The position numbers were made by a program, and so were the translations under genes. The notes beneath the pieces are model-generated. The model searched no databases. It saw only the letters and a list, made by a program, of their open reading frames with translations, and had not been told where the DNA came from. This document shows positions 11,350-30,360 of a DNA stretch of 64,000 nucleotides, piece by piece (position 1 is the stretch's first letter; every line of letters starts with the position of its first letter). This DNA is from Halovenus carboxidivorans. Lineage in GTDB: Archaea; Halobacteriota; Halobacteria; Halobacteriales; Haloarculaceae. The stretch lies in NCBI RefSeq assembly GCF_009831575.1, contig NZ_WUUT01000001.1, positions 1 through 64,000 on the forward strand. Direction: 5' to 3'.

Positions 11350-12571
11350 CCTCGCGAACACGGTCGCACTCGACGAGGTCGATCCGGCCCGTTCCCGACA
11401 CGCCGGCCGGCGCTCGGCGGTGGCACTTGGCTCCGATGCGGTCGTCGTCGGGACCGCCGCCGGGACTGTCCGCGCCTTCGACCGCGATCCACTGGCCGAA
11501 CGATGGCGGGCAACGCCGGCCCCTGGTCGCGAGGAGGATCCGTCGGTCGTCTCCGCGGTGATCTGCGAGGGAACTGTGATCGTCGGCGAGCGGAGCGCGA
11601 CCGGCCACGTCCGCGGGTACGACCTCGCGACCGGGGAGCTATCGTTCCGATACGCGACGGCCGACGACATCGGCGCTCCGGCCGAGGAGACGCGGTTTTT
11701 CCTGCCGTTCGTCGTCGATATTCGGACGGACGGGGACCGAGCGTACGTCGCCGCTCGCCGTTACGAACGCGACGGCGGCGACCGCTCGTTCGAGAGCGTG
11801 ATCCACGCCCTCGATCCGGAGGGAACAGTTCGGTGGCGGTACCAAACCGACGCCTCCCCGATCAGCCTCGACGCGGCCGGAGACCGACTCGCAGTCGCGT
11901 ACAACCGCTGTCCCGGCGAGTACCAGCACGGACTGGTCCTGTTGGACGCGAACACGGGCAGCGAACGCTGGCACTGGGATCCGGGTACCGACGGCCAGCG
12001 CCGAGTCGGTGACGTTTCGCTGCTTGCCGACGGTCTCGCGCTCACGTCTCACGGCGACTACCGCGGGTACCGTCTCGACCCCGGCGGAGCGATCCGCTGG
12101 CGTGTCGATCTGGCAACGCCCCGAGAGATCGGTGGCGAGACGCTGTACGCCTACCCGAACCACGTCCACGCGAGCGACCACGGCGTGGCCTTCGTCACCG
12201 GAAACACGTACGCGGAACAGGGCCGTGACACTGACGGGCTCCACCCGGACGAACACACCGTCTTCGGCTACGCTCCGGCGGGCGGCCAGCGCTGGAAAGC
12301 CGACATCGGCGGTTTCGCCCACGGCCTCGCCGCTGACGCCGACCGGATCGCGGTCCCTTCCGCTCAGCACTTCCGAAGCCGTGATCCGGACGACCACGGA
12401 CTATCGACGTTCGACATCGGTGACGGCCCGCTCCAGGCCACGGAGACAGACGGTATCGTGACGGCGACTGCCGTCGACGGAAATGGAGTCGTCGGGGTCG
12501 AGGAGCCGGTCAGCTACCACGACGACGACCGGACCCACGGTCGGTATCGACTGCACGCACAGCCGGTGTGA
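11342..12571 (+). CDS. PQQ-like beta-propeller protein at the end of the corrin operon
   Basis: A 409-residue protein with repeated blades of the BamB/PQQ-like type: recurring W-x-x-x and LDANTGSERWHWDPG, GTVRWRYQTD, GAIRWRVDL and GQRWKADIGG segments, each following an L/V-D-x-x-G core. There is no signal peptide or lipobox, so it is probably cytoplasmic, unlike BamB. It begins eight bases before the end of the previous gene, which ties it to the corrin operon. In haloarchaea similar genes occur in cobalamin clusters. A scaffold or corrinoid-binding role is conceivable but unproven. Confidence 0.75.
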   Translation: MSSLANTVALDEVDPARSRHAGRRSAVALGSDAVVVGTAAGTVRAFDRDPLAERWRATPAPGREEDPSVVSAVICEGTVIVGERSATGHVRGYDLATGELSFRYATADDIGAPAEETRFFLPFVVDIRTDGDRAYVAARRYERDGGDRSFESVIHALDPEGTVRWRYQTDASPISLDAAGDRLAVAYNRCPGEYQHGLVLLDANTGSERWHWDPGTDGQRRVGDVSLLADGLALTSHGDYRGYRLDPGGAIRWRVDLATPREIGGETLYAYPNHVHASDHGVAFVTGNTYAEQGRDTDGLHPDEHTVFGYAPAGGQRWKADIGGFAHGLAADADRIAVPSAQHFRSRDPDDHGLSTFDIGDGPLQATETDGIVTATAVDGNGVVGVEEPVSYHDDDRTHGRYRLHAQPV

Positions 12572-12625
12572 TCGCTGCCGGCCCGAATCGCGGCTTTTGA
12601 ATCCCCCCACGTCGAACAGAAGGCA

Positions 12626-13261
12626 ATGACACTCGTTGCGTTCGATTTCGACGGGACGCTGTCGGACTCGGAGATGACGGTCCTGCTCGGTGAGCAGTGT
12701 GGGGCGGCCGACCAGATGGACGAGATCACCGAACAAGCGATGAACGACGAGATCGAGTACGCCGAGAGCCTGCGCAAGCGCTGTGCGCTGCTCGACGGAC
12801 TCCCCGAGGCCGACGCACAGGAGGCCTTCGATCAGGTCGTCCTCCGGCCGGAGACGGATGCCGTCGTCGAAGCGCTCGACTCGGCGGGCGTCTACACCGC
12901 GATTCTGACCGGCGGGTTCGAGCGCGGCGTCGAATCTGCACTCGAAACGGCGGGGGTCGACGTGGAGACGCTGATCGCCAACCGCCTGCCCGTCGAGGAC
13001 GGCGAACTGACCGGCGAGGTCGAGGGGCCGTTGATCGAGGGGACCAAAGACGACGCGCTCGATATTCTGACGACGGTCGTCGAGGAACCCATGGAGGAGA
13101 CCGTCGCCGTCGGTGACGGCGCCAACGACCTCCCGATGCTCGAAGCCGCCGGCTTCGCGGTCGGGTTCGCCCCCAAACCCGCGGTCGAACCGGCCTGCGA
13201 TGTCGTCGTCGAGTCGATGCCCGAACTGCTCGACGTGCTCGAAGACCGCGGCGTCTGCTGA
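12626..13261 (+). CDS. serB: Phosphoserine phosphatase SerB (HAD family)
   Basis: A 211-residue HAD hydrolase with motif I FDFDGTLSDSE at the N-terminus, motif II ILTGGFERG, a motif III Lys region (EGTKDDAL) and motif IV VGDGANDLPML. This matches SerB, which dephosphorylates phosphoserine in the last step of serine synthesis. Other small HAD phosphatases are possible. It begins 54 bases after the propeller gene, with a TATA-like CTTTTGA stretch at about 12594-12600, so it has its own promoter. The GIY-YIG gene follows without a gap. Confidence 0.85.
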   Translation: MTLVAFDFDGTLSDSEMTVLLGEQCGAADQMDEITEQAMNDEIEYAESLRKRCALLDGLPEADAQEAFDQVVLRPETDAVVEALDSAGVYTAILTGGFERGVESALETAGVDVETLIANRLPVEDGELTGEVEGPLIEGTKDDALDILTTVVEEPMEETVAVGDGANDLPMLEAAGFAVGFAPKPAVEPACDVVVESMPELLDVLEDRGVC

Positions 13262-13543
13262 ATGCCGCAGTACGTCTACGTCGTCGAATGTGCCGACGGC
13301 TCGCTGTACACCGGCTACACGACCGACGTGGGCCGGCGCGTCGAGGAACACAACGCCGGAGACGGCGCGAAATACACCGCTGGCCGCCGGCCCGTCTCGC
13401 TCCGGTACGTCGAGTATCACCCCTCACGGAGCGCCGCCCAGAGCCGCGAACACGCGATCAAGTCCCTCTCTCGAAGCGAGAAAGACCGGTTGCTTCCCGA
13501 CGCCGACGACCGCGTCGGCATCGACTACTCCGCGGTCGTTTAG
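13262..13543 (+). CDS. GIY-YIG nuclease-domain protein (UPF0213 type)
   Basis: A 93-residue single-domain protein. The GIY-YIG fold is seen as YVYVVECADGSLYTGYTTD, where the motif reads VYVV...YTGYT, followed by RVEEHNAGDGAKYTAGRRPV (catalytic Arg), LRYVEYH and SREHAIKSLSRSEKDRL (Glu). This is the stand-alone UvrC-like GIY-YIG family. The start is immediately after the serB stop. The last four bases overlap the polymerase gene, which runs toward it from the other strand. Confidence 0.88.
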   Translation: MPQYVYVVECADGSLYTGYTTDVGRRVEEHNAGDGAKYTAGRRPVSLRYVEYHPSRSAAQSREHAIKSLSRSEKDRLLPDADDRVGIDYSAVV

Positions 13544-22726: not shown

Positions 22727-23410
22727 TCAGTACTCAGTTCCCTTCCGTGCGCTGTGGCCCGCGTCGAAGGGGTGGCTCTCCTTGGCGACGTTCGTGACGA
22801 GATCGGCCAGTTCGGTGACGTACTCGGGGCGGTCGTGTCCGCCGGTCAACACGAGTTCCAGCCCGTCGGGTTTCGACTCGACCAGGTCGACGACGTTCCC
22901 GGGGTCGACGAGCCCCCGGTTCGCGGCGTAGAGAATCTCGTCGAGGACGAGCATGTGGACGCCCTCTTGCGGTGGTCCGTCGAGCGCGAACGGCGAGTCG
23001 AGGTCGGCATCTCGGCAGCCGTCCAGTAGCTCGCGAGTCCGTTCGAGGGCACCCCGGGCCTGTGCGGCGTGGTCGTCGTCGTCGGAGCCGTCCCGGAAGC
23101 CGTGCCAGCCGTAGTGACCCGCGTTCTCGTAGCTAAAGCCCGGCATCGCGGTGATCGCGTTGTACTCCCCGCGGATCGACTCGACGCTGCCGGCGCCGCC
23201 TTTCATGAACTGGAGCATGTGTACGCGGTAGCCGTGGCCGGCCGCCCGGAAGCCCATCCCCATCGCGGCGGTCGTCTTCCCCTTCCCGTCGCCCCACCAG
23301 ACCTGTGTGAGTCCGAACTCCGCCGGCGCAGCGGGTTCGATCGGCTCGGGCGTCGGCCGCTGGTCGTCCGTCGATTCGTCCGCCGGTTCGCTGTCGTGTT
23401 CGTCTGTCAT
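22727..23410 (-). CDS. cobA: Cob(I)yrinic acid a,c-diamide adenosyltransferase (CobA/BtuR type)
   Basis: A 227-residue protein that transfers the 5'-deoxyadenosyl group of ATP to Co(I) corrinoids. The P-loop WWGDGKGKTTAAMGMGFRAA, the VHMLQFMKG strand and the later LDEILYAANRGLVD (Walker B-like) are diagnostic of CobA/BtuR. The first ~30 residues are an acidic haloarchaeal extension. The start codon overlaps the cbiZ stop by four bases, and it is followed closely by cbiP. Confidence 0.94.
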   Translation of the reverse strand: MTDEHDSEPADESTDDQRPTPEPIEPAAPAEFGLTQVWWGDGKGKTTAAMGMGFRAAGHGYRVHMLQFMKGGAGSVESIRGEYNAITAMPGFSYENAGHYGWHGFRDGSDDDDHAAQARGALERTRELLDGCRDADLDSPFALDGPPQEGVHMLVLDEILYAANRGLVDPGNVVDLVESKPDGLELVLTGGHDRPEYVTELADLVTNVAKESHPFDAGHSARKGTEY

Positions 23411-24123
23411 GAGTGCTCTCGTGGATCGAAAACGTCCGCGCGCTGGTCAGTTACGACGCCGTACCTCGCTGCCTCGACGGTTTCCGGTGGCTCGTCCTCG
23501 GCGTACCGCGCCTCGAAACCCGCTCGGATCGCCTCGCGGACGCAGGCTCGGGCCGCGGCGCCGACCTCGGTCGCGCTCCCGCTGAACTCGGCCTCCTCAC
23601 CGTCGACCGCGCTCCCGACGACGATTGCGTCCGTCGTCGTCCCGGTCACGCCGGCAACGTCGAGCAGCGTCGCGGTCTTCGCTTCGGCGACGACGCTGAC
23701 GAGATTCGCCTGCGCACCGTCTGTCAGCGACCGATCCGTTGCGACGATTAGATTCACCGTTCCGACCGACCCTGGGCCCGCTTCCGAGATATTTCCCTCG
23801 TGAGTCTCTTTCGGATCGGCCGGAAGCGTCGCCGGGTTCGAGAGGCCGACAGTGGCGTAGGCCACCACGGGGCCGAGTCGTGCGCCGCGGGCGTGGTTCA
23901 CGTCGACGCCGGTCAGCAGCGTCGGCCCGGACTCCCGGAATCCCGCCGCCTCGCGTTTTTCGCGGCTGTACCGGTCGATATCCTCGCGCTCCCAGCCCTC
24001 CGGCACGGTGATGTTGTACGCCGCCGGTGCGCGCTCGAACCCACCGCTGTAGCCGGTCGAGAGCCACCGCGCGCCGGGACGCCGAAGTCGGAACACGCCC
24101 TCGGTCACAGCCGGTTCATACAC
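23407..24123 (-). CDS. cbiZ: Adenosylcobinamide amidohydrolase CbiZ
   Basis: A 238-residue CbiZ-family protein. The archaeal CbiZ pattern is present: RWLSTGYSGGFERAPAAYN, LLTGVDVNHARGA and VVAYATVGLSNPATLP, ending VVVGSAVDGE and SATEVGAAARACVREAI. It cleaves the aminopropanol amide of adenosylcobinamide to adenosylcobyric acid, so imported incomplete corrinoids can be rebuilt. Together with cbiB, cobY and cobS this completes archaeal salvage. It overlaps both cobA (four bases) and the cobY-cobD fusion (eight bases). Confidence 0.92.
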   Translation of the reverse strand: MYEPAVTEGVFRLRRPGARWLSTGYSGGFERAPAAYNITVPEGWEREDIDRYSREKREAAGFRESGPTLLTGVDVNHARGARLGPVVAYATVGLSNPATLPADPKETHEGNISEAGPGSVGTVNLIVATDRSLTDGAQANLVSVVAEAKTATLLDVAGVTGTTTDAIVVGSAVDGEEAEFSGSATEVGAAARACVREAIRAGFEARYAEDEPPETVEAARYGVVTDQRADVFDPREHS

Positions 24124-25726
24124 CGTCCACCACCTCCAGCAGTCGGTCGTTCTCCGCCGGCAGTCGGACGGCGACCCGGACGTGATTGTCCAACCCGCGG
24201 AACGTCCGCGCGTCTCTGAGAATCACGCCCTGCTCGCGGGCGGCTTCGAGCACTGCATCCACCGACCGCCCCTTCACGTCGAGCAGCAAAAACGGAGCCG
24301 CAGAGGGCGCGACATCGAACGTCTCGGACAGTTCCGCTCGGAGTCGCTGGCGCTCGCTCTCGACACGCTCTCTTGTCTCTGCAACGAACGCCTCCGCCCG
24401 GAGACAGTGCGTCCCGACGGCGAGTGCCGGGGCGGAGAGATTCCACGTCCGCCGGGCGGCCGACAGCGCCTGCCCGAACCGTCCGGTCGCGACGGCGAAT
24501 CCGGCACGAATCCCGGGCATCCCGTACAGTTTCGTCAGCGCCCGCGCGACGACGACCCCCTCCGTTCCGGCCATCGACGGCTGTTCGGTGAACCCGAGAA
24601 ACGCCTCGTCGACCAGTAGCGTCGTTCCCGCCTCCCGACACGCGGCGGCGAACCGCTCCAGGTCGGCCCTGTCGTACAGCCTCCCGGTCGGGTTGTTCGG
24701 GTTGCAGACGACCGCCGTGGCGTGTCCCGATGGGTCGGCAGCGGGAATCTCCTCGGCGTCGACGAAGACGGGGTCTGCGCCCTGGAGACGGACCTCGCGG
24801 GCGTACTCCCCGAAGCTCGGAGCCGGGACGAGCACGGAGTCGCCCGGGGAGACCGCGAGTTCGATGCTCCGACGGATGGCCGCGAGCCCACCGGGCGTCG
24901 GAACGACGGACTCGGGATCACAGCCGACGTACGCCGCCGCCGCCTCGCGGTACTCTTCCGGCGGCTCCGGCGGATAGCGCTGTGTCTCGCTGAACGCCTT
25001 CCCGTAGACCTCCTCGGTCCCCGGCGGCACCCGCGGATTCGTGTTCGCGCTGAAATCGAGCACGTCGGCTCTGTCGCTGCTCCCGTGGGGCGTCCGACCG
25101 ACCCGCCCTGCGGTTTCGACGCCGCCGGTCGACCGGGCGGTTCCCGGCGGTCGGTCGCCGGCGAGGGACTCGGCGACCGCGGCGTCCTCGGGGTAGTTGA
25201 CGTTCACCGCCACGCGTACGTCGTGGCTGACTGTGACCCCCTCTCGCTCTGTCTCACCGACGACGTTCACACCTGCCGAAGCGATTGTCTGCCCGTCCCG
25301 TTCCATCGTCGTGTCGCTGCTCACCCCGAGCGTTCCTTTGAGGGTATCTGGAACGTAGACGGACAGCGACCCGCTTTCGTGTCGATTCAGCAGTCGATCT
25401 ATCACTTCACCGTCGAGCAGCGGGAGGTCGGCGGCGACTGTCACGACCGGCGGTTCGATCCGGCCGAGAGCGTACCCCAGGTCTGCGACGTAGCCCTCGC
25501 CCGGCGCGTCGATGATCGTCACCGCTTCCCCTCGCTTCGAGTCGAGATACCGGCGCGTCTCCGGGGTGTGCGGGGAGACAACCGCGTAGATGTTCTCGAC
25601 TCGGCTGTCGACGAGCGCCCCGCAGACGCGGTCGACCATCGGAACGCCACCGACCTCGTACAGCGGCTTCTCGGTGTCGGCGCCGAGGCGGGTGCCGCGG
25701 CCGCCGCACATCACGAGAGCGTCCAC
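24116..25726 (-). CDS. cobY-cobD: CobY-CobD fusion: adenosylcobinamide-phosphate guanylyltransferase with threonine-phosphate decarboxylase
   Basis: One 536-residue frame contains two enzymes. Residues 1-~190 are CobY: VDALVMCGGRGTRL matches archaeal CobY starts, so the GTG at 25726 is the start. SPHTPETRRYLDSKRGEAV and VAADLPLL follow. After a Gly/Pro/Arg linker (~190-220) begins a PLP aminotransferase-fold CobD (SANTNPRVPPG, CNPNNPTGRLYDRADL, and the Lys in ALTKLYGMPGIRAGFAV). There is no in-frame ATG or GTG in the linker, so both parts are likely translated as one. CobY activates adenosylcobinamide phosphate with GTP. CobD makes aminopropanol phosphate from threonine phosphate. Confidence 0.9.
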   Translation of the reverse strand: MDALVMCGGRGTRLGADTEKPLYEVGGVPMVDRVCGALVDSRVENIYAVVSPHTPETRRYLDSKRGEAVTIIDAPGEGYVADLGYALGRIEPPVVTVAADLPLLDGEVIDRLLNRHESGSLSVYVPDTLKGTLGVSSDTTMERDGQTIASAGVNVVGETEREGVTVSHDVRVAVNVNYPEDAAVAESLAGDRPPGTARSTGGVETAGRVGRTPHGSSDRADVLDFSANTNPRVPPGTEEVYGKAFSETQRYPPEPPEEYREAAAAYVGCDPESVVPTPGGLAAIRRSIELAVSPGDSVLVPAPSFGEYAREVRLQGADPVFVDAEEIPAADPSGHATAVVCNPNNPTGRLYDRADLERFAAACREAGTTLLVDEAFLGFTEQPSMAGTEGVVVARALTKLYGMPGIRAGFAVATGRFGQALSAARRTWNLSAPALAVGTHCLRAEAFVAETRERVESERQRLRAELSETFDVAPSAAPFLLLDVKGRSVDAVLEAAREQGVILRDARTFRGLDNHVRVAVRLPAENDRLLEVVDGV

Positions 25727-26457
25727 GCCATCACCCCCGCGTGCAGCGCCGTCGCCCGCGCCAGTTCGTTGGTCGCGCCGAGTACGTCCCCGCTCACGCC
25801 GCCGAGGCGTCCTCTCGCCCACCGAGAGACGGCGGCGGCGCTCACCCCCGCACCGAGCAGCGCCGCCGCCCCCGGGAGCAGTCGGGGCCAGCTCAGAAGG
25901 GCTGCTGGGGCCGCGAGCAGTCCGACGACGACCCCATCTCGGGCCGTCGCGTTGCCGGTCAGCGACGACCCGAGGCCGTCGTGTGCAGCAGTCCCGAGGC
26001 AGACGACCCCGGCCATCGCCGCCTTCGCTCCGACCTCCGCGACGACGACGAGCGCCAGCGCCCGTCTCGGCAGGCCAGCCACGCCGACCGCCGCGGTCCC
26101 GAGCGCGAAGACGACCAGCGCGACGCCGAGCACGCCGCCGGTCCCGACTTCGGTGTCTGTCATGACCGCCCGCCGCCGCTGCGGGTCGCCGTGGACGACC
26201 GCGGCGTCACCGAGGTCGGCAACGCCGTCCAGGTGGGTGATCCCCGTCAGACCGTAGACGAGTGCGACGAAGATCACGGCGGCGGTCACGTCAGGTCCCG
26301 GCAGCAGGAAGACGGGTGCGAGGAGGCACCCGAGTAGCAGACCGACGACCGGGAACACCGTCGGCGTCCGCCGAAACGCGTCCCAGTCGCGCTCGCTCCC
26401 GCCGACGGGGATCCGCGAGAGGAACCCGACCGCCCCGCGGACCGCGGCGATGCTCAT
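25711..26457 (-). CDS. cobS: Adenosylcobinamide-GDP ribazoletransferase CobS (cobalamin synthase)
   Basis: A 248-residue integral membrane protein, with about six or seven Ala/Val/Leu-rich segments. FLSRIPVGGSERDW near the start and the acidic motif THLDGVADLGDA are characteristic. It joins adenosylcobinamide-GDP and alpha-ribazole phosphate or alpha-ribazole in the membrane. The start ATG at 26457 overlaps the cbiB stop (ATGA). The 3' end overlaps the cobY start by 16 bases. Confidence 0.92.
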   Translation of the reverse strand: MSIAAVRGAVGFLSRIPVGGSERDWDAFRRTPTVFPVVGLLLGCLLAPVFLLPGPDVTAAVIFVALVYGLTGITHLDGVADLGDAAVVHGDPQRRRAVMTDTEVGTGGVLGVALVVFALGTAAVGVAGLPRRALALVVVAEVGAKAAMAGVVCLGTAAHDGLGSSLTGNATARDGVVVGLLAAPAALLSWPRLLPGAAALLGAGVSAAAVSRWARGRLGGVSGDVLGATNELARATALHAGVMAWTLS

Positions 26458-27371
26458 CCGATCACCCCCGCCGCCCCGGCGGCGACGCCCGCGAGCAGGA
26501 AGGCGACCGCACCGGCGACTGCGACGATTCGAGTCCCCCGGCGGGCCTCGGCCGCGCTCGGCAGGTCCCGCTCCGGGTTGAGGACGTACGCGTCTGTCTT
26601 GACGAGTTTGACATCCAGCACGGCCGCGAGCGTCGCCATCGGCCACCCGGAGTTCGGCGACGGAGGTGCGGACGCCCACTGGCCGGCTCGGACCATCGCG
26701 GCGGGGTCGCCCGCCGCGAGCGCGATACAGCCAGCGCTGACTCGCGCCGGTATCCACATCGCGACGTCGTCGAGTCGGGCGCTCGCCCACCCGACGGGTT
26801 TGCTGCGGTAGCCGAGCATCGAATCCAGCGTGTTCACCGCTTTCACCCAGACCGCCGCCCCGACACCGACCGCCAGCGAGAGGTGGACGCCGACCGCGAA
26901 GGCGGCAAGCGGCGCGACCACCCCGTCTGCGAGGTTCTCCGCCGCGCTCTCCACTGCTCCGCTCCGGAGTTCGCCCGGTGAGAGGGCGGCGGTGTCCCGT
27001 CCGACCAGCGCACTGACGGACTCGCGCGCCGTCGCCGGGTCGGATTCGGTCCCGTCGATCACCTCCTGTGCGACCGAGACGAGCATCCGCAGGCTCACCG
27101 TCGAGAACAGGACAAGTCCCGCGAGCACGCCGGCCAGCGCTGTGCTGATCGCCAGCGCGGCCGCCGTCGTCGCCGCAGCGAGCAGGCCGGCGACGAGCGG
27201 CAGCACGACGGCGACGACCAGCCCGATGACCTTCGGGCGACGCCACTCCCGGTCGACGGCGGCGACGACCCGGCCGAACCACGCGACGGGGTGGACTCGC
27301 TCGGGCGGCTCCTCGAAGAGCAGGTCTCCGGTCAGCGAGAGGCCGACCGCCCCCGCCGCTGTCAGCCCCAT
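26454..27371 (-). CDS. cbiB: Adenosylcobinamide-phosphate synthase CbiB
   Basis: A 305-residue membrane protein that attaches aminopropanol (phosphate) to cobyric acid. Conserved segments are LLFEEPPERVHPVAWFGRVV, SAVESAAENLADGVVAPL (here GAVESAAENLADGVVAPL), VKAVNTLDSMLGYRSKPVGW and a C-terminal NSGWPMATLAAVL. Several hydrophobic helices surround these motifs. The start overlaps the preceding HAD gene by ten bases and the stop overlaps cobS. Confidence 0.93.
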   Translation of the reverse strand: MGLTAAGAVGLSLTGDLLFEEPPERVHPVAWFGRVVAAVDREWRRPKVIGLVVAVVLPLVAGLLAAATTAAALAISTALAGVLAGLVLFSTVSLRMLVSVAQEVIDGTESDPATARESVSALVGRDTAALSPGELRSGAVESAAENLADGVVAPLAAFAVGVHLSLAVGVGAAVWVKAVNTLDSMLGYRSKPVGWASARLDDVAMWIPARVSAGCIALAAGDPAAMVRAGQWASAPPSPNSGWPMATLAAVLDVKLVKTDAYVLNPERDLPSAAEARRGTRIVAVAGAVAFLLAGVAAGAAGVIG

Positions 27372-28027
27372 CTCTCACCCCGCGCGAGCGGTCCGTCGCC
27401 GACGATCCAACTCGACCCGCCGACTTCGCTGATCCCCCCGTCGGTCTCCGGGTCGTCACCGATATGCAACAGCTCTCCGGTCTCGACGCCGAGGGCGTCA
27501 GCGACTGCGGTAAACGCGTGGCTGTCGGGTTTCCGCCAGCCGCAGTCGACGCTCGTCACGACGGCCTCGAACCGCTCTCGGTCGATTCCTGCGCTGTCGA
27601 GGGCGTGTTCGGCCAGTCCGGCGACGGCACAGTTCGAGAGCACACCGACCGGTCGCCGGTCAGTCAGGTACTCGAGCAGGCGCTCGGCACCCGGTCGGGG
27701 TTCGGCCTCGACGGCGAAGGCGGCCCGAACCGCCTCCGCGACGGTCGGCCGTATCTCCTCCCGACGGAGCGGTTCGTTTCGGCTCGCCAGCGCCGCTGCG
27801 ACGTGGTCTGCGAGCGGGAGTTCGCCCCCCTCTTTCACGTCGAGATGTGCCTCGCGGTAGGCTGTCGCCCAGTCGTCTGGCACGCTCACCCCCCGGGCGT
27901 CGAGTTCCCGCGCGACCGCCGCGGCGGGGTCGTCGGGCCGTTCGACGCTGACGAGCGTGCCGAACAGGTCGACGGAGACGGCCGCGCAGTCGGCCACCGC
28001 CGCCCGGAGAGCCGTCTCCCGGCACAT
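27362..28027 (-). CDS. HAD-family hydrolase of the cob operon, substrate unknown
   Basis: A 221-residue HAD protein. Motif I is SVDLFGTLVSVE, with the nucleophile Asp but Phe where phosphatases have the second Asp. Motif II is GVLSNCAV, motif III CGWRKPDSHAF with its Lys, and motif IV IGDDPETDGG. It starts two bases before the end of cbiA's intergenic gap and overlaps cbiB, so it is in the operon. Alpha-ribazole-phosphate phosphatase (CobZ/CobC) is not otherwise visible here and could be its role, but the DxF motif makes simple phosphatase chemistry uncertain. Confidence 0.75.
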   Translation of the reverse strand: MCRETALRAAVADCAAVSVDLFGTLVSVERPDDPAAAVARELDARGVSVPDDWATAYREAHLDVKEGGELPLADHVAAALASRNEPLRREEIRPTVAEAVRAAFAVEAEPRPGAERLLEYLTDRRPVGVLSNCAVAGLAEHALDSAGIDRERFEAVVTSVDCGWRKPDSHAFTAVADALGVETGELLHIGDDPETDGGISEVGGSSWIVGDGPLARGERWG

Positions 28028-29361: not shown

Positions 29362-30360
29362 TCATGGCTGTGGTCGCTGTTCGGTTACCCGGTCGTACAC
29401 CGCGGTGACTCGGTCACGAAACCGTTCCATCTCGATGTCGCGCTCCCGACAGCGCGCGAGCAGTCCTCCCATCCCGACGCCTTCCTTGGCCTCGCCCGCG
29501 ACGTAGCCGTTCAGCGCCGGATGGTCCCGGTGCTCGAAGCCGGGATCGGTGACCGTCAGCTCCAGACCCAATCGGTCGGCAAGCTCTTCGATTGCGGCGC
29601 TGTCGTCCTCTGCGACGAACGACGTCGTCGCGAGCGACAGCGGCGCGTCGACCCCCTCGTGACGGACCAGCGCGGCCCCGGTCGCCAGTTGCGTTCCGCC
29701 GGCCAGCGTCACGTCGGTCCCCGATTCCAGCGCACCGACGGTCAGTCCGAACACCGCCGCGAGCACGGGATCACCCATCGTCTCGACGGCCCGGACCGGA
29801 TCGTCGGCGGCGTCGCCGTCCACCAGACCGCTCGCGTCCATCCCCTCCGCCACGACGCGTCTCTTCAGCCCGAGGGGATTCTCCGGCAACGACGACGAGA
29901 CTCCCGTGGGTTCGCCGAGCGCGGTGAGCACGCCGAGCGCCGTGGTCGTCCCGCCGGGAATCGTCTCGCCGATCAGTACGCGCTCGTCGCCGAGCGCACG
30001 ACCCACTCGCTTCCCGGCGGCGACGACCGCCTCGGCGTCCGGGAGCGGCTCCGGTTCGCGAACGTCGGCACCGACCGACCCCCCGAAATCGACCGTCGGT
30101 GTCACCGTCTCCGCCGCCAGTCCGGCGTCGACGCCGAGCAGGTCGATTCCGAGCAGTTCGCGAGCGGCCCGGCTCATCACCGCCGGTGTCGGACAGCCGC
30201 TCGGGCTCACGGGCACCGGGCGGTCCACCGGCTGTCCGTATTCGAGCAGTTCGAGGTCGGCGGCCGGCGTCTGTCTCATCAGTTCGGGCGTGGCTCCGGC
30301 GGCGCTGATCCCGTCGATGCGAGCGGTCTCGGTGTGTCCCCCGACGAGTACGAGCCGCAT
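29362..30360 (-). CDS. cobT: Archaeal CobT, nicotinate-nucleotide:dimethylbenzimidazole phosphoribosyltransferase family (UPF0284)
   Basis: A 332-residue protein of the archaeal CobT-like family. It matches in the [10 protein letters not shown] start, [54 protein letters not shown] and the C-terminal [10 protein letters not shown] motif. It activates the lower-ligand base as its alpha-ribotide for the nucleotide loop. Which base this organism uses is unknown; no DMB synthesis gene lies in the window. It is one base from the cbiX-like gene upstream. Confidence 0.88.

What the first reader, a model, noticed from the sequence alone, without database searches (positions are those of the whole stretch)
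24116..25726. CobY and CobD fused in one open reading frame
Adenosylcobinamide-phosphate guanylyltransferase (CobY) and threonine-phosphate decarboxylase (CobD) are read as one 536-residue protein. Both catalytic parts look intact (VAADLPLL region in CobY, ALTKLYGM Lys in CobD), and no ATG or GTG occurs in the linker, so separate translation is unlikely. These two enzymes act on opposite sides of the aminopropanol and nucleotide steps, so the fusion could channel intermediates or keep stoichiometry.
Basis: seen in the sequence. Interest (0 to 1): 0.55.

Follow-up and report, generated by a model that had tools for sequence, protein, structure and literature searches.

The report
Fused CobY–CobD vitamin B12 gene
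In this salt-loving archaeon two neighbouring vitamin B12 genes have run together into one long gene; both enzyme halves look intact, but no other genome that was read has the fusion, so it looks like a private quirk of one lineage rather than a new system.

Summary
Window 24116-25726 (minus strand) is one 536-codon ORF: an intact CobY half (1-188), a tether (about 189-213) and an intact CobD half (214-536), inside a B12 operon. It holds the genome's only CobY; the other CobD-like hits there are 30-34% identical. Among 146 genomes of the family and 337 matching of 392 of the order (rows completed), no other printed match runs stop-free through both halves. In 130 cobY/cobD junctions read, none is fused: 84 adjacent, 46 with a gene between, cobT in 45. 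AlphaFold gives two confident domains and a disordered linker, 191-215. CobD's product is not CobY's substrate, because CbiB acts between them, so direct channelling is not supported. The linker has no start or stop in any frame. Of 1485 single-base events one (deletion at 25131) would give the 4-nt stop/start overlap seen in 29 of 84 adjacent relatives (19 of the 29 from one genus), so a recent frameshift or assembly error is not excluded; sampled frameshifts are few. Probably a genuine but private two-domain fusion; modest interest.

The parts
24116..25726 (-). cobY-cobD fused ORF, 536 codons plus TGA
   Evidence: only printed stop-free match over both halves among the genomes searched
25163..25726 (-). 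CobY domain (residues 1-188), GTP:adenosylcobinamide-phosphate guanylyltransferase
   Evidence: PF12804; PDB 2mzb/3rsb; residues of GGRGTRL, ADLPLL and VNVN invariant or nearly so in 20 rows; pLDDT of 10-residue blocks 76-96
25088..25162 (-). linker (residues 189-213), no start or stop codon in any frame
   Evidence: pLDDT below 50 at residues 191-215
25128..25134 (-). site where a one-base deletion (at 25131) would give GTGA, a 4-nt overlap of a CobY stop with a CobD start; place to re-sequence
   Evidence: the only one of 1485 single-base events that restores two genes
24119..25087 (-). CobD domain (residues 214-536), L-threonine-O-3-phosphate decarboxylase
   Evidence: TIGR01140 above cut-off; PDB 3fkd and 1lc5 by sequence and 1lc8/1lkc by fold, Foldseek E about 4e-24
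24530..24532 (-). codon of K399, the PLP lysine of CobD by family rule (LTK)
   Evidence: invariant in 20 of 20 rows, window included; its role is recalled for this fold, from no call
25711..26466 (-). cobS, adenosylcobinamide-GDP ribazoletransferase; its 3' end overlaps the fused ORF
   Evidence: TIGR00317 149.5 bits, cut-off 110
26454..27371 (-). cbiB, adenosylcobinamide-phosphate synthase, the step between CobD and CobY
   Evidence: TIGR00380 186.3 bits, cut-off 165.9
23407..24123 (-). cbiZ-like adenosylcobinamide amidohydrolase; overlaps the end of the fused ORF by 8 nt
   Evidence: NF038002 amidohydrolase part, E 3.7e-29, 102.2 bits against a cut-off of 250; HVO_0592 cbiZ has a like place by locus number in Hfx. 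volcanii
29362..30360 (-). cobT, here away from cobY/cobD
   Evidence: NF003371 485.3 bits, cut-off 434, a model described only as 'hypothetical protein'; TIGR00303 (CobT) 238.9 bits, just under its cut-off of 240; its relative lies between cobY and cobD in 45 of 46 spaced relatives

Best explanation
A genuine, lineage-private gene fusion. Two operon neighbours, cobY and cobD, lost the stop and start between them and now make one two-domain polypeptide. Each half should work as its separate relatives do: CobD decarboxylates L-threonine-O-3-phosphate to aminopropanol phosphate, membrane CbiB attaches that to cobyric acid, and CobY transfers GMP from GTP to the resulting adenosylcobinamide phosphate. 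The halves are tied by a flexible tether of about 25 residues, so the likely effect is no more than co-production and co-localisation around CbiB, with no direct channel. Shown: one ORF, intact domains, sole CobY copy, absence elsewhere in the sample. Inferred: translation as one chain, and both activities.
For: One ORF with both domains full length. Residues invariant among relatives kept in both halves. Only CobY in the genome at E <= 0.001; the other CobD-like hits are 30-34% identical. B12 operon with overlaps on both sides. Separate neighbours are the usual state: 84 adjacent and 46 spaced of 130 junctions, 0 fused. No start or stop in the linker in any frame, and only 1 of 1485 single-base events would undo the fusion. 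Sampled assembly (464 kb): 7 of 114 same-strand frame switches flagged; two of the seven lie in one decayed gene, four look like false alarms, one is unresolved. AlphaFold: mean pLDDT 88.3, below 50 only at 191-215.
Against: Seen in one genome only, so conservation gives no support for function as a fusion. One single-base deletion would restore a common relative architecture: a 4-nt overlap is found in 29 of 84 adjacent pairs, 16 of them GTGA, and the restored start would lie 15 codons before the CobD His-Gly. Codon shuffles of the linker give a like site in 9 of 400, random codons in 68 of 400; any restoring event in 18 and 373 of 400. The frameshift scan finds only 38 of 63 planted insertions. 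The nearest relatives are too distant (trees unresolved) to date the event. In-frame GTGs at codons 172/174 could start a separate CobD. Both curated CobY models score below cut-off.
Confidence: 0.7

Rival explanations
1. Assembly or sequencing error, or an unfixed frameshift in the sequenced clone: one extra base at about 25131 hides a GTGA overlap, and the organism has two ordinary genes.
For: The only single-base event of 1485 that restores two genes gives exactly this kind of architecture; 29 of 84 adjacent relatives overlap by 4 nt, 16 as GTGA; matched codon shuffles show a like site in 9 of 400; fusion seen in no other genome examined.
Against: Not a homopolymer (CGGTCGACC). Few frameshifts in 464 kb of the assembly, and the one clear case is a decayed gene; completeness 98.31%. 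With random codons a like site arises in 68 of 400 linkers. 19 of the 29 overlapping relatives are of one genus, g21, in another family. The restored start would lie 15 codons before the His-Gly, against 13 in several relatives.
Confidence: 0.22
2. Fused ORF, but the cell also makes separate CobD by starting at in-frame GTG 172 or 174 inside cobY.
For: Both GTGs are in frame and open into cobD; starts that overlap the end of cobY are common in relatives.
Against: Such a start would lie 40-42 codons upstream of the CobD His-Gly, longer than in most relatives read; no promoter or ribosome-site evidence was sought.
Confidence: 0.06
3. Junction made by deletion of a CobY C-terminal tail of the kind seen in genus g21 together with stop and start, the linker being a tail remnant.
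For: Linker resembles the L012 tail (score 41; 10 of 2000 shuffles reach it).
Against: The tail group was picked after seeing the likeness; six of the seven tails score only 19-27; the CobY tree does not join the window to g21.
Confidence: 0.1

Closest known systems
Separate cobY and cobD1 genes of haloarchaea (HVO_0587 cbiB, 0588 cobS, 0589 cobY, 0590 cobT, 0591 cobD1, 0592 cbiZ; PMC8305020, passage, order taken from the locus numbers)
   Same: Same two enzymes in the same kind of gene cluster
   Different: Two proteins, with cobT between them in Hfx. volcanii; no fusion
CobBC fusion (NCBIfam NF053748, bifunctional a,c-diamide synthase / CobC aminotransferase)
   Same: A CobD/CobC-type domain at the C-terminal end of another B12 enzyme; the window CobD half matches its C-terminal part
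   Different: Partner is CobB, not CobY; whole-protein score 132.4 against a cut-off of 950, so not a member
Methanosarcina MM2060 kinase-decarboxylase (recalled; the paper was not read)
   Same: CobD-type enzyme with an extra activity in one chain
   Different: Extra activity is L-threonine kinase

Membership tests
CobY (EC 2.7.7.62) | NTP-transferase fold related to solved CobY | tested here: met
   2mzb E 8.9e-23, 3rsb E 6.2e-22; PF12804 72.5 bits, cut-off 27
CobY (EC 2.7.7.62) | Curated NCBIfam score (NF045495, TIGR00454) | tested here: not met
   103.4 of 250 and 109.9 of 174.7; NF045495 bears the label 'Meth'; the haloarchaeal relatives were not scored against these models
CobY (EC 2.7.7.62) | Conserved residues of GGRGTRL, ADLPLL and N177 | tested here: met
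   invariant or nearly so in 20 rows, window included; their role in nucleotide binding is recalled
CobD (EC 4.1.1.81) | Curated NCBIfam score TIGR01140 | tested here: met
   292.7 against 290.55
CobD (EC 4.1.1.81) | PLP lysine and N-terminal His-Gly | tested here: met
   K399, H214, G215 invariant in 20 rows, window included
CobD (EC 4.1.1.81) | Decarboxylase rather than aminotransferase activity | not testable with these tools
   needs assay
A conserved CobY-CobD fusion family | Fusion present in more than one genome | tested here: not met
   1 of 146 family genomes searched; 1 of 392 order genomes searched, 337 of them with a match (rows completed); 0 of 130 junctions read
CobBC fusion | CobB domain before the CobC domain | tested here: not met
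   132.4 of 950, best stretch residues 194-532

The most novel reading that the evidence does not exclude
The fusion is functional and selected: CobD and CobY, which act just before and just after the membrane enzyme CbiB, are tethered so that one soluble bifunctional protein docks on CbiB and serves both its supply of aminopropanol phosphate and the capping of its product, a minimal nucleotide-loop metabolon.
Probability: 0.1. Interest if true: 0.45.

Novelty: new variant of a known kind. Interest (0 to 1): 0.22.

Why it matters
If real, it is a natural tether of the enzymes on either side of CbiB, and a ready construct for testing whether late B12 enzymes work as a complex at the membrane. 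It also shows how tightly overlapping genes in haloarchaeal operons can turn into a bifunctional protein by very few changes. Otherwise it changes nothing in the known pathway.

Tried and rejected
First reasoning, dropped: that at least two independent errors would be needed to fake the fusion, since no start or stop exists in the linker. The enumeration showed that one deletion suffices.

Candidates for further fusions were opened and rejected: G367 (one 810-aa open frame reported for both halves; the fetched DNA has a stop 111 nt before the CobD match), genus g46 (G291 match from residue 125 without a stop; cobY lies 1 kb upstream), and 20 long-open-frame cases: none fused.

The first protein alignment for folding (A1) was wrong, CobY rows laid over CobD, and was not used.

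Paper searches for the fusion: six phrases, 0 papers; 1 paper, PMC8123684; 12 of 17 passages were shown, no such fusion in them; listings with starts of abstracts only, apart from the papers named here. Passages of PMC8305020 and PMC6719526 were seen. Rodionov 2003 is not held.

Full report
What is there. Window 24116-25726 on the minus strand is one open frame of 536 codons with a GTG start and TGA stop. Residues 1-188 are CobY: NTP-transferase domain PF12804, best solved relatives 2mzb and 3rsb, both adenosylcobinamide-phosphate guanylyltransferase. The two NCBIfam models of CobY type match well below their cut-offs. Residues 214-536 are CobD: TIGR01140 just above its cut-off; 3fkd, 3ftb and 1lc5 by sequence; 1lc8/1lkc by fold. 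Residues that never or hardly vary among 20 aligned pairs are kept in both halves. The neighbours are late B12 genes: cbiP, cobA, cbiZ-like, the fused ORF, cobS, cbiB, a HAD hydrolase, cbiA and cobT (the matches for cobA, cbiZ and the HAD gene are below curated cut-offs, and that for cobT is 1.1 bits below its CobT-named model). The ORF overlaps cobS and the cbiZ-like ORF at its two ends.

Is it the usual state? No. The own genome has one match to CobY at E <= 0.001; its five other matches cover all or part of CobD at 30-34% identity. In the family, 123 of 146 genomes match at E <= 1e-60, and only G000 has a stop-free match over residues 1-536; the five other matches over nearly the whole length (G073, G006, G017, G169, G019) and one over 1-528 (G089) each hold one stop codon. 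In the order, 337 of 392 match at E <= 1e-75, but the printed rows are capped; rows for the remaining genomes are, (80 of 80 and 66 of 66 match at 1e-40) and, for G171. No printed row other than G000's is stop-free over both halves.

Because a fusion with a different linker could be split into two matches, I fetched DNA and read junctions, including the cases with long open frames. A recount over 139 distinct stretches gives 84 adjacent pairs, 46 with a gene between and 0 fused; nine stretches lack one of the two genes and are not counted. The gene between is cobT in 45 of 46. The stretches are the best matches and the long-frame cases, not a random sample. Outside the haloarchaea, CobY frames among the rows printed are about 200-360 residues, too short to hold CobD; 362 of 392 genomes matched there and not all rows are printed.

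How did it arise? The linker has no ATG, GTG or TTG in any frame, and no stop in any frame between codons 175 and 260. I tested 1485 single-base substitutions, insertions and one- or two-base deletions. Nine substitutions would create an in-frame stop but none a usable CobD start; exactly one event, deletion at 25131, gives a CobY of 198 residues whose stop overlaps a GTG start for CobD (GTGA) 15 codons before the His-Gly. A 4-nt overlap is found in 29 of 84 adjacent relatives, 16 as GTGA and 13 as ATGA; 19 of the 29 are of genus g21 (labels). Under a null of shuffled linker codons a like site appears in 9 of 400, under random codons of this gene in 68 of 400; any restoring event appears in 18 and 373 of 400. 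So a one-base insertion into an ancestral overlap is a fair guess at the origin, and the same change could be an error.

Is it an error? A codon-usage scan of 464 kb (window plus 20 stretches) found 114 same-strand frame switches, of which 7 lacked a nearby stop or start. For five of the seven I gave Pfam both ORFs (10 of 14 ORFs). Two belong to one decayed malic-enzyme/phosphate-acetyltransferase remnant near an ORF that looks like an integrase by eye. Two have a full family match in one frame. One has no match in either frame and stays unresolved. The other two are neighbouring ORFs. The scan recovers 38 of 63 planted insertions. Frameshifts are thus rare in this sample, but one error cannot be excluded without reads.

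How would it work? AlphaFold from 20 read-through rows gives mean pLDDT 88.3, below 50 only at residues 191-215, and pTM 0.61: two folded domains on a loose tether. In the pathway CobD's product goes to CbiB, and CobY acts on CbiB's product (established; the table in PMC8305020 lists cobD1, cbiB and cobY as separate genes, passage). The two active sites share no intermediate, so direct channelling is not expected; tethering both around CbiB is possible and untested.

Novelty. No paper in the held library uses the fusion's likely names, and a broader search gave one paper whose shown passages do not mention it. CobD-type domains fused to another B12 enzyme are known (CobBC, NF053748). This is a new domain pairing of known enzymes, seen once. 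Interest is modest.

Noticed in passing
window 27362-28027 (-): HAD-family hydrolase between cbiA and cbiB; the Haloferax counterpart by position, HVO_0586, is a predicted alpha-ribazole-phosphate phosphatase (EC 3.1.3.73) in PMC8305020.
   Followed up: partly
window 29362-30360 (-): cobT lies upstream of the cobY-cobD pair here, whereas in 45 of 46 spaced relatives it lies between cobY and cobD.
   Followed up: partly
L147 about 11500-13300 (G000:C2 about 111.5-113.3 kb): Decayed, frameshifted remnant of a malic enzyme with phosphate-acetyltransferase domain, close to an ORF that looks like an integrase by eye.
   Followed up: partly
L012, L070-L073, L075-L079, L082, L085, L089: CobY of many genus g21 genomes carries a C-terminal tail with a GGV/I-D/E-W-L-like motif that was not seen in the other CobY tails listed.
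   Followed up: no
G006:C2, G017:C68, G023:C1 and several g65 genomes: A second CobD copy, 44-48% identical to the window's; Hfx. volcanii also has cobD1 and cobD2.
   Followed up: no
window 22727-23410 (-): CobA-type adenosyltransferase matches its models in two stretches and well below the cut-off, as if it carried a divergent middle.
   Followed up: no
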